From NCBI RefSeq assembly GCF_900638685.1, contig NZ_LR134533.1:992001-1056000 (forward strand): a DNA stretch of 64,000 nt, given 5' to 3'. Positions 24,005-26,055 of the stretch are shown in pieces. Both the position numbers and the translations under genes were made by a program. The notes under the pieces are model-generated. The model was not told where the DNA came from, made no database searches, and was given only the letters and a program-made list of their open reading frames with translations. Within the stretch, counting starts at the first letter, position 1; the number at the start of each line of letters is the position of its first letter. Source of the stretch: Neisseria weaveri. Its GTDB lineage: Bacteria; Pseudomonadota; Gammaproteobacteria; Burkholderiales; Neisseriaceae.

Positions 24005-24859
24005 ATGAGTACAACGGTTACCTTCCACCGCAATCAAATTTCAACAGCCAACCATTTACCTTTTACACTGTTTGGCGGCGTGAATGTTCTCGAAGACCTA
24101 GACTCCACATTATTTGCTTGCGAGAAGTATGTGGAAGTAACACAAAAACTCGGCATTCCTTACGTTTTCAAAGCTTCTTTCGACAAAGCAAACCGTTCCT
24201 CCATCCACTCTTTCCGCGGAGTAGGGCTAGATAAAGGCATGGAAATTTTTACAGCCGTAAAAAAAGAATTCGATGTTCCAGTAATTACGGATATCCACGA
24301 ACCCTATCAATGCCAGCCGGTAGCTGAAGTATGCGATATCTTGCAGCTTCCTGCATTCCTTGCCCGTCAAACGGATCTGGTAGTGGCTATGGCAAAAACC
24401 GGACGCGTTATCAACGTCAAAAAACCGCAATTTCTCAGCCCTTCACAGATGAAAAATATCGTTGAGAAATTCAAGGAAGCCGGCAACAGCCAACTGATTT
24501 TATGCGAACGCGGAGCAAATTTCGGTTATGACAATTTAGTTGTCGATATGCTCGGCTTCGGCGTGATGAAAAAAACCTGCGGCAATACGCCGGTGATCTT
24601 CGATGTTACCCATGCTTTGCAACAGCGCGAAGCAGGCGCAGCAGCGTCCGGAGGACGCCGCAGTCAAGTTGTGGATTTGGCTTTAGCGGGAATGGCAACC
24701 GGCTTGGCAGGACTGTTTTTAGAATCACATCCCAACCCCGACCAGGCAAAATGCGACGGGCCGAGTGCCTTGCCTTTGGATAAACTGGAAGACTTTTTAG
24801 TGCGCGTCAAAGCCGTCGACGACCTAGTAAAATCTTTTCCTGCATTGGATATCGAATAA
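24005..24859 (+). CDS. kdsA: 3-deoxy-8-phosphooctulonate synthase KdsA
   Basis: Condenses D-arabinose 5-phosphate with PEP to Kdo 8-phosphate, the first committed step of the Kdo branch of lipooligosaccharide synthesis. The 284-residue product has KLGIPYVFKASFDKANRSS near the N-terminus, TDIHEPYQCQPVAEV, LPAFLARQTDL, and the PEP-binding CERGANFGYDNLVVDM and DVTHALQQ segments. Cys in KASF context is absent, consistent with the metal-independent class. AAGGAAAA upstream serves as ribosome site. The stop overlaps the next start in TAATG. Confidence 0.98.
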   Translation: MSTTVTFHRNQISTANHLPFTLFGGVNVLEDLDSTLFACEKYVEVTQKLGIPYVFKASFDKANRSSIHSFRGVGLDKGMEIFTAVKKEFDVPVITDIHEPYQCQPVAEVCDILQLPAFLARQTDLVVAMAKTGRVINVKKPQFLSPSQMKNIVEKFKEAGNSQLILCERGANFGYDNLVVDMLGFGVMKKTCGNTPVIFDVTHALQQREAGAAASGGRRSQVVDLALAGMATGLAGLFLESHPNPDQAKCDGPSALPLDKLEDFLVRVKAVDDLVKSFPALDIE

Positions 24860-26055
24860 TGCAAACATCGTCTTTAGTCACACTGATTATTCCGTTTTTC
24901 GAACCCGAAAGACACAACGGAATAACCGATGCGGCCAACATTCAGGATATTTACCGACAGATATCGCAAATCCAAGGCATTAATACGATTATCACCATAA
25001 CCGATAACGCCGACCTTGCTGCCGAAATCGAAAATCTCGGCAAAACGGTAATGTTGGTTCAAACCGAAACCAATAAAGTCTATGCCGATATCCACAATCG
25101 ATACCCTGCCGACATTTATATCCGGCTGGAACCGAAGCTATTTCCATTCGAGCCGGCCGGCATAGAAACATTCATTGCCAATATGGCGGCTTCGACCGAA
25201 ACCGGCATAGGCACATTGTGTACACCGATATCCGAAGTCAACGCCCATAATCCCAATACCGTTAAAGTGGCATTGGATTGCAACAACCATGCTTTATATT
25301 TCAGCCCTTATCCGATTCCGTCTACAATCAACTACGAAAACAAGTCCTATCTCCGACACATCGATGTTTTTGCCTACCGTCATGCCATTTTTTCACAACT
25401 GTGCACTTTAGCAAAAACTGATAACGAGCAGCACACCTTAACTCCTCTTGCTATTTTGTCGTCAGGATTCCGAATCAAAGCATTTGAAACGCAAGTCCCT
25501 TTGCCATGCAGTACCATTTCACCATTATCCGCCGTCAAATTGGTCATTACCGATGTAGATGGCGTATTGACAGACGGCGGCATCATTTACGATGAAACGG
25601 GAGAGTGCCTCAAGCGCTTCCATGTCCGTGATGGTTTGGGCATACGTATGCTTGAAGAGTCAGGCATACGCGTTGCCGTTTTGTCGGGTCGCGATTCCGC
25701 AACACTGCGAAAACGGGTCAGCGACTTAGGTATTTCATTCTTTAAATTCGGTGTAAAAGACAAATTCGCTGCTTGCCGTGAATTAATGCAGCAAGCCGGT
25801 GTTTCTGCCGAAGAAACTGTCTGCATCGGTGACGACACCATCGACCTGCCCGCTTTTGCCGCCTGCGGATTCAGCTATGCCGTCGCCGACGCGCCGGAAT
25901 ATATCAAAAGCCAAGCAACAGGCCGTCTGAATACTCCGGGCGGCAACGGAGCATTGCGCGAATTGGCCGATGCCGTTTTAACCGCACAAAATAAAGCAGA
26001 TGTCTTTTCAACAGCAGAAGGTTTTGCCAAAATTATGCATGGTGCGAAACAATAA
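24859..26055 (+). CDS. kdsC: Fusion of a degenerate KdsB-like domain with Kdo-8-phosphate phosphatase KdsC
   Basis: 398 residues, about twice a normal KdsC. Residues about 226-398 are a complete HAD phosphatase of the KdsC type: nucleophile motif TDVDGVLTDGG (231-241), FHVRDGLGI, SGRDS (276-280), KDK (300-302) and GDDTIDLP (324-331). Residues 1-215 resemble Kdo cytidylyltransferase KdsB: TDNADLAAEIENLG follows the family's TDxxxVAxxVExxG, NPNTVKVALDCNNHALYFSPYPIP is close to the KdsB central segment, and YLRHIDVFAYRHAIF matches its RHxGIYxYR segment. But the nucleotide loop (RxxSxRLPGKPL), NVQGDEP and the C-terminal GVDTPEDL are missing or replaced (FEPERHNG, YIRLEPK). The N-terminal half is therefore probably non-catalytic. 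It is coupled to kdsA and followed by kdsD. Confidence 0.85.
   Translation: MQTSSLVTLIIPFFEPERHNGITDAANIQDIYRQISQIQGINTIITITDNADLAAEIENLGKTVMLVQTETNKVYADIHNRYPADIYIRLEPKLFPFEPAGIETFIANMAASTETGIGTLCTPISEVNAHNPNTVKVALDCNNHALYFSPYPIPSTINYENKSYLRHIDVFAYRHAIFSQLCTLAKTDNEQHTLTPLAILSSGFRIKAFETQVPLPCSTISPLSAVKLVITDVDGVLTDGGIIYDETGECLKRFHVRDGLGIRMLEESGIRVAVLSGRDSATLRKRVSDLGISFFKFGVKDKFAACRELMQQAGVSAEETVCIGDDTIDLPAFAACGFSYAVADAPEYIKSQATGRLNTPGGNGALRELADAVLTAQNKADVFSTAEGFAKIMHGAKQ

What the first reader, a model, noticed from the sequence alone, without database searches (positions are those of the whole stretch)
24859..26055. KdsC phosphatase fused to a KdsB-like domain that has lost its catalytic motifs
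Seen: 398 residues, with a complete KdsC at 226-398 and an N-terminal region that lines up with KdsB over the TDxx(D/E)xA segment, NPNTVKV(A/V)LD..ALYFS and RHxxxxAYR. Missing: the nucleotide loop with S-R-L-P-G-K-P, NVQGDEP and GVDTPEDL. Known: Kdo is made by KdsD, KdsA, KdsC and KdsB, and normal KdsC is about 180 residues. Vertebrate CMAS joins a related cytidylyltransferase to a KdsC-like domain, and there both halves have been retained. Inference: the dead half may anchor KdsC to KdsA or to the real KdsB, channel Kdo, or regulate it. I do not know of such an arrangement in Neisseria.
Basis: partly seen in the sequence, partly recalled or inferred. Interest (0 to 1): 0.75.

Follow-up and report, generated by a model that had tools for sequence, protein, structure and literature searches.

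The report
KdsC phosphatase carrying a dead KdsB
In one Neisseria-type genome, a two-in-one enzyme for the LPS sugar Kdo has kept its phosphatase half intact while its sugar-activating half has lost its catalytic residues, apparently because the bacterium makes that half elsewhere.

Summary
Confirmed: window 24859-26055 encodes 398 residues, a complete KdsC after a KdsB-like half without catalytic motifs. The arrangement itself is not new: KdsB+KdsC fusions of about 430 residues are scattered through many proteobacterial genera (66 of the 80 loci kept by one scan), usually with kdsA nearby. The asymmetry is unusual. Measured against 179 other fusions, the window keeps 66 of 66 near-invariant KdsC positions but 36% of the KdsB ones; the next lowest of the 179 keeps 85%. 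A same-family genome (G351) has kdsA-fusion-kdsD with a live KdsB half, its only KdsB and KdsC. The window's genome has a normal separate KdsB, no other KdsC found, and an empty kdsD-kdsC slot. Best reading: an acquired fusion plus kdsD displaced native kdsD-kdsC; the redundant KdsB half died while KdsC stayed constrained. Hydrophobic pattern and dimer/Kdo lobe survive better than catalytic residues, so a structural role is possible but unproven. Up to nine genomes with the same redundancy keep a live half, so redundancy alone does not explain the loss.

The parts
24005..24859 (+). kdsA (Kdo-8-phosphate synthase), 284 aa, native type; its stop overlaps the fusion's ATG (TAATG)
   Evidence: ORF; 76-85% identical to kdsA of 15 same-genus genomes; same TAATG junction in G351
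24859..26055 (+). 398-aa two-domain protein: decayed KdsB half plus complete KdsC
24859..25524 (+). residues 1-222: non-catalytic KdsB/KpsU-like half
24892..24930 (+). residues 12-24: remains of the CTP loop (PAR..S/T-R-L-P-G-K-P of live relatives), shortened, Lys lost
   Evidence: alignments
25129..25143 (+). residues 91-95 in place of Q-G-D-E-P; Mg-binding Asp replaced by Lys
   Evidence: role of the Asp from PMC3149649
25249..25320 (+). residues 131-154, NPNTVKV...ALYFSPYPIP: best preserved stretch of the dead half, in the dimer/Kdo lobe
25438..25452 (+). residues 194-198, L-T-P-L-A in place of L-E-Q-L-R
25495..25512 (+). residues 213-218: site of the in-frame deletion of the GPGVDTPECL... 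segment, which holds the second Mg ligand
25525..26055 (+). residues 223-398: complete KdsC, HAD motifs D-x-D-GVLTDG, S-G-R-D, K, GDD-x-x-D
26086..27051 (+). kdsD/kpsF (arabinose-5-phosphate isomerase), foreign type
   Evidence: 76% to G351 kdsD over 237 aa but 44-47% to kdsD of 15 same-genus genomes

Best explanation
This is a member of the KdsB-KdsC fusion family in which only KdsC still works. A kdsBC-kdsD pair of the kind found near kdsA in other bacteria came to lie behind a native-type kdsA; the native kdsD-kdsC pair was lost from its slot before lptC, so the fusion became the only KdsC. A separate native KdsB remained, so the fusion's KdsB half was no longer needed: it lost both Mg-A ligands and the CTP lysine and diverged far beyond any other fusion examined, while the KdsC half stayed fully constrained. 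In the cell the protein most likely only dephosphorylates Kdo-8-phosphate; native KdsB makes CMP-Kdo. The dead half probably still folds and may serve as an inert dimerisation or solubility module. Shown by sequence: architecture, motif loss, gene content, gene order, one-sided divergence. Inferred: acquisition, order of events, inactivity and activity of the halves. Weakly supported: the structural role (the first two rivals below are the two versions of this last point).
For: Fusions with the KdsB catalytic residues in place occur in many genera. G351, same family but another genus, has kdsA-fusion-kdsD with the same TAATG junction and a live KdsB half that is its only KdsB and KdsC. The window genome has one normal KdsB and no other KdsC; the only further hit of a KdsC query is a weak one, E 5e-4, inside a 737-codon frame. 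The tal-like gene there is followed by lptC with no kdsD-kdsC and no detectable remnant, where G015 has kdsD-kdsC between them. The window's kdsD is foreign and its kdsA native type. N-half identity to 112 fusions 31%, C-half 73%; 4064 fusion pairs with C-half identity 68-78% have N halves at 67% on average, never under 54%. End branch 6.27 in the N-half tree (largest other 1.67) against 0.28, rank 15 of 30, in the C-half tree (29 chosen fusions plus the window). The N half matches KdsB halves of fusions best (124 bits, G351), three standalone KdsBs of the genus at 49-53. Fold.
Against: Up to nine of the 36 fusion genomes examined have the same gene content (fusion as only KdsC found, plus a separate KdsB) and keep a live KdsB half: seven clear cases, and two less clear, G407 (also a distant two-domain match, 28%) and G414 (its separate KdsB match is only 37% identical, in a 600-codon frame). 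So redundancy does not force decay. In the C-half tree the window lies near Halomonadaceae as well as G351, so donor and number of transfers are open. The structure model used an alignment full of live KdsBs, so its KdsB-like fold is not independent. No activity was measured.
Confidence: 0.82

Rival explanations
1. Pure relic: the dead half has no role at all. It stays in frame only because stops or frameshifts there would cut off the KdsC behind it, and no clean deletion has yet occurred.
For: Openness of the frame is explained by KdsC alone. Ramlibacter rhizophilus (L153) has a fusion-type KdsC directly after kdsA with the KdsB half gone, so the half can be dispensed with. GC of the half is 44% against 50% for the KdsC half. 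Both differences to P0002 lie in the dead half.
Against: 68 of 79 hydrophobic columns stay hydrophobic against 50-65 expected under a neutral codon model (z 0.9-4.2, by the amount of drift assumed), and where the residue differs from G351 32 of 43 are still hydrophobic against 21-25 expected, z 2.4-3.4. The dimer/Kdo lobe is better kept than the CTP lobe (24 of 41 against 12 of 51, Fisher p 0.003; gaps left out 24 of 41 against 12 of 38, p 0.024).
Confidence: 0.42
2. Structural module: the dead half is kept because its dimer lobe supports folding, solubility or oligomerisation of the KdsC half, the mirror image of vertebrate CMAS, where the KdsC-like half is the silent partner.
For. In KdsB the lobe that survives better is the one that forms the dimer and binds Kdo (PMC3149649, passages). 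For CMAS, PMC8636478 passages tell of a C-domain without phosphatase activity that forms a tetramer.
Against: Pasteurellaceae KdsC of the same type (10 loci, 180 aa) and the Ramlibacter one exist without it. The lobe contrast is modest, and catalytic positions are concentrated in the CTP lobe, which would give a contrast by itself.
Confidence: 0.4
3. Docking: the dead half pairs with the separate live KdsB through the surviving dimer lobe and keeps KdsC and KdsB in one complex.
For: Survival of the dimer lobe; a live-looking KdsB exists in the same genome.
Against: Only 35% identity over 106 residues to the own KdsB; no interaction data; standalone KdsC and KdsB are separate proteins in the other genus members seen.
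Confidence: 0.1
4. The N half still makes CMP-Kdo with an unusual site.
For: Fold of KpsU kept in the model; H178 and R21 kept.
Against: CTP lysine and both Mg-A ligands gone, present in 179 of 179 other fusions; role of these residues in PMC3149649.
Confidence: 0.02

Closest known systems
KpsU-type CMP-Kdo synthetase + KdsC fusions of about 430 aa (a frequent database name: 3-deoxy-manno-octulosonate cytidylyltransferase)
   Same: Domain order, KdsC half 70-79% identical, kdsA nearby, N half most like these fusions
   Different: KdsB half has lost its catalytic residues and is only 28-34% identical
KdsC / YrbI of Haemophilus influenzae (1j8d, 1k1e, 4hgp)
   Different: No N-terminal half
KpsU, capsule-type CMP-Kdo synthetase (1gq9, 1gqc, 1h7e)
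   Different: CTP loop, Mg ligands and LEQLR motif missing
Vertebrate CMP-sialic acid synthetase (CMAS)
   Same: A cytidylyltransferase-fold half joined to a KdsC-like half, one of them silent
   Different: There the transferase half is active and the KdsC-like half silent (PMC8636478, passages); here the reverse, by motifs
Standard neisserial KdsC (kdsD-kdsC-lptC operon)
   Same: Expected role in LOS Kdo synthesis
   Different: Only 40-45% identical, no N half, other locus

Membership tests
KdsC, Kdo-8-phosphate phosphatase (HAD IIIA, YrbI) | Family model over its cut-off | tested here: met
   TIGR01670 subfamily 140.1 against 106.95 bits; the equivalog NF007019 is not reached (154.5 against 208)
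KdsC, Kdo-8-phosphate phosphatase (HAD IIIA, YrbI) | HAD catalytic residues | tested here: met
   D266, D268, S310, K334, D359, D360, D363 (G351 numbering) all kept
KdsC, Kdo-8-phosphate phosphatase (HAD IIIA, YrbI) | Phosphatase activity on Kdo-8-phosphate | not testable with these tools
   No enzyme assay
KdsB/KpsU, CMP-Kdo synthetase | Cytidylyltransferase fold/superfamily | tested here: met
KdsB/KpsU, CMP-Kdo synthetase | Equivalog model over cut-off | tested here: not met
   TIGR00466 54.4 against 155.2; NF003948 47.9 against 281
KdsB/KpsU, CMP-Kdo synthetase | CTP loop lysine and the two Mg-A aspartates | tested here: not met
   K25, D104, D231 present in 179 of 179 other fusions, absent in the window; roles PMC3149649
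KdsB-KdsC bifunctional fusion | KdsB-like half followed by KdsC half in one frame | tested here: met
KdsB-KdsC bifunctional fusion | kdsA and kdsD as neighbours (frequent, not universal) | tested here: met
   kdsA found in 59 and kdsD in 50 of the 66 full-length fusion loci (counted; stretches up to 13.3 kb, some shorter; some kdsD are not adjacent or lie on the other strand)
KdsB-KdsC bifunctional fusion | Both halves catalytically complete | tested here: not met
Vertebrate CMAS | Active transferase half, silent phosphatase-like half | tested here: not met
   Opposite pattern by motifs

The most novel reading that the evidence does not exclude
After losing catalysis, the KdsB half was turned into a scaffold: its surviving dimer lobe pairs with itself or with the genome's separate live KdsB, so that KdsC and KdsB stay physically coupled although the covalent bifunctional enzyme has died. 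It would be the mirror image of vertebrate CMAS.
Probability: 0.12. Interest if true: 0.65.

Novelty: new variant of a known kind. Interest (0 to 1): 0.4.

Why it matters
It catches a bifunctional enzyme part way to losing one function: live fusion (G351), dead half kept (window), half gone (Ramlibacter; perhaps Pasteurellaceae). That makes a testable case of how fused enzymes come apart after gene transfer and of whether a dead domain keeps a structural job. It also warns annotators: proteins of about 430 aa named 3-deoxy-manno-octulosonate cytidylyltransferase can also carry the KdsC step.

Tried and rejected
Sequencing slip or frameshift at the 5' end: rejected; the other two frames are broken by stops and show no loop, and P0002 has the same half. 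Fusion made inside Neisseria from its own KdsB: rejected; the N half matches KdsB halves of 64 fusions at 59-124 bits but three KdsBs of the genus at 49-53. Redundancy alone as a sufficient cause: weakened by up to nine genomes with the same gene content and live halves. Pasteurellaceae KdsC as proven offspring of the fusion: not established; the AU test does not reject a fusion clade without them (p 0.20; 14 of the 66 rows, seven long-branched or duplicated and seven near-identical ones, had been left out). The first genome-contig scan, with P0001, gave no relative; the protein-database search with residues 1-222 found only P0002, probably a limit of its word filter, since one search found the fusions. 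My motif filter dropped 3 of 179 fusions before (L099, P0102, P0105); put back the result stood, and P0105 turned out to be a possible early decay case. In one search the row labelled D(GVDT) hit the wrong place (position 50); the right one, D231, is. Frequency: 'scattered', not 'common'; of 398 other genomes sampled evenly from the order only one (G567) has a full fusion at E <= 1e-62. A control structure prediction of the intact G351 fusion was not accepted. Literature: 10 answered searches (68 and 84 without any hit; some asked about KdsB sites, neisserial KdsC and CMAS) listed no paper that names this fusion or its decay; the library holds open-licence papers only. I saw listings, passages and section 7 (part 1 of 2) of PMC3149649, and passages of PMC6461280 and PMC8636478. 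PMC6461280 reports a Kerstersia kdsB listed just before kdsA and 71% identical to Pseudomonas monteilii, which may be this fusion unrecognised.

Full report
What is there. Window 24859-26055 (+) is one open frame of 398 residues. Residues 226-379 match the KdsC subfamily model over its cut-off and the H. influenzae KdsC structure sequence at 216.5 bits. Residues 31-191 match the Pfam cytidylyltransferase family over its cut-off; residues 26-213 match KpsU (1gq9) with E 9e-24, but the five KdsB models of NCBIfam that match fall far short of their cut-offs.

The architecture is known from databases. A protein search with the KdsC part returned 937 proteins, of which 120 were listed; 112 of the 120 are 422-448 residues long. 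Those with a name come among others from Cupriavidus, Vreelandella, Litchfieldella, Pseudomonas, Janthinobacterium and Ramlibacter and are called 3-deoxy-manno-octulosonate cytidylyltransferase or KdsC. A scan of one genome per species kept 80 loci of 464 confirmed ones. Of the 80, 66 carry a full-length fusion, one a fusion split by a frame change (L149), one a KdsC alone behind kdsA (L153, Ramlibacter rhizophilus), two a KdsB alone, and ten a solo Pasteurellaceae KdsC of the same type. kdsA lies in 59 and kdsD in 50 of the 66 stretches (counted). The fusion is scattered rather than common: of 398 other genomes sampled from the order only one has it in full at E <= 1e-62. The intact KdsB half of G351 is of the capsule (KpsU) type: 346 bits to KpsU, 202 to the E. 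coli LPS enzyme 3k8d.

The KdsB half is dead. In A. aeolicus KdsB, R10, T14, R15 and K19 bind the triphosphate, D95 and D219 hold Mg-A, residues 2-91 and 220-234 form the CTP lobe and residues 100-210 the dimer and Kdo lobe (PMC3149649, passages and section 7 part 1). The equivalent Lys and both Asp occur in 179 of 179 other fusions and are missing in the window; Q102, Q208 and R210, also in 179 of 179, and E207, in 178 of 179, are replaced; R21 and H178 remain. The segment with the second Asp is deleted in frame.

The decay is one-sided. Against 112 fusions the window's N half is 31% identical (28-34) and its C half 73% (70-79); pairs of other fusions with C-half identity between 68 and 78% (4064 pairs) have N halves at 67% on average and never below 54%. 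Of near-invariant columns it keeps 66 of 66 in KdsC and 37 of 101 in KdsB (176 fusions); with three dropped rows put back it keeps 36% of 100 KdsB columns, as does its near-copy P0002, and the next lowest fusion 85%. On trees of the window and 29 chosen fusions the window's end branch is 6.27 for the N half (median of others 0.43, maximum 1.67; so long that it is saturated) and 0.28 for the C half (rank 15 of 30).

Genome context. The window lies in a 2.24 Mb single-contig genome, G000. It holds one other KdsB, 253 aa, 74-77% identical to KdsBs of two genus members, and no other KdsC; the one further hit of KdsC queries is weak (E 5e-4 to 8e-4) and lies in a 737-codon frame. In 12 of 15 genus members compared, kdsD and kdsC lie within about 2 kb of each other (read off). 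In G015 a tal-like gene (name recalled from its sequence) is followed by kdsD, kdsC and lptC; in the window genome about 290 bases lie between the tal-like gene and lptC (PF06835), without kdsD or kdsC and without a detectable remnant. The window's kdsD is 44-47% identical to genus kdsDs but 76% to that of G351; its kdsA is 76-85% identical to genus kdsAs. So the kdsBC-kdsD pair looks acquired and the kdsA native. No other of 46 genus genomes and only one other of 83 family genomes has a fusion-type KdsC at E below 1e-45. That one, G351, shows the before state: kdsA, an intact 432-aa fusion joined by the same TAATG overlap, then kdsD, with no separate KdsB or KdsC found.

A test that cuts both ways. 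In 42 genomes (G000, G351 and those of 40 of the 80 loci) 36 have a full-length fusion with the KdsB residues in place; 33 of the 36 also have a separate KdsB match and 26 a separate KdsC match at E <= 1e-9 (counted; some genomes are drafts or MAGs). In G351 and two MAGs (G391, G397) the fusion is the only KdsB found, so live KdsB halves are probably used. But in nine genomes the fusion is the only KdsC found and a separate KdsB exists, as in the window, and the KdsB half is intact: loci L086, L092, L094, L097, L104, L115 and L125 are clear; L127 (G407) has in addition a distant 28% two-domain match, and in L144 (G414) the separate KdsB match is only 37% identical, in a 600-codon frame. Redundancy permits the decay but does not force it.

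Conclusion. The protein is a KdsC with a vestigial, probably still folded KdsB half, derived from a bifunctional fusion. Whether the vestige is idle or structural is open, at roughly even odds. Vertebrate CMAS is the mirror case: there the KdsC-like half is silent and described as an oligomerisation module (PMC8636478, passages).

Noticed in passing
L155-L156, L158-L165: Solo KdsC of Pasteurellaceae, including H. influenzae whose KdsC is in the PDB, falls in the clade of fusion KdsC halves and not with neisserial and other standalone KdsCs; nesting within fusions is not proven (AU p 0.20).
   Followed up: partly
L153:5970-6651: Ramlibacter rhizophilus has a fusion-type KdsC directly after kdsA with the KdsB half gone, and separate KdsB and KdsC matches elsewhere (G415).
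   Followed up: partly
protein P0105 (429 aa, metagenomic): A second full-length fusion whose KdsB half is losing conserved residues (R16 and R21 to G, a changed QGDEP with Q and D kept) while its near-invariant KdsC columns are complete: a possible early decay case.
   Followed up: partly
L149:4022-5308: Cupriavidus sp. amp6: fusion cut between the halves by a frame change; KdsB half 259 aa in its own frame.
   Followed up: no
window 25920-25931: A full twelve-base neisserial DNA uptake sequence lies in the coding sequence of the KdsC half; the window has 98 copies of its ten-base core, G351 stretches carry another dialect (names recalled).
   Followed up: partly
L074:10719-12493: In G351 the kdsD behind the fusion ends early (241 aa) at ORFs that look like a transposase (recalled).
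   Followed up: no
G407:C2:95796-96977: Halorhodospira abdelmalekii genome has, beside the KdsB-KdsC fusion, a distant 28% match that spans both domains in a 449-codon frame; perhaps another sugar's two-domain enzyme.
   Followed up: no
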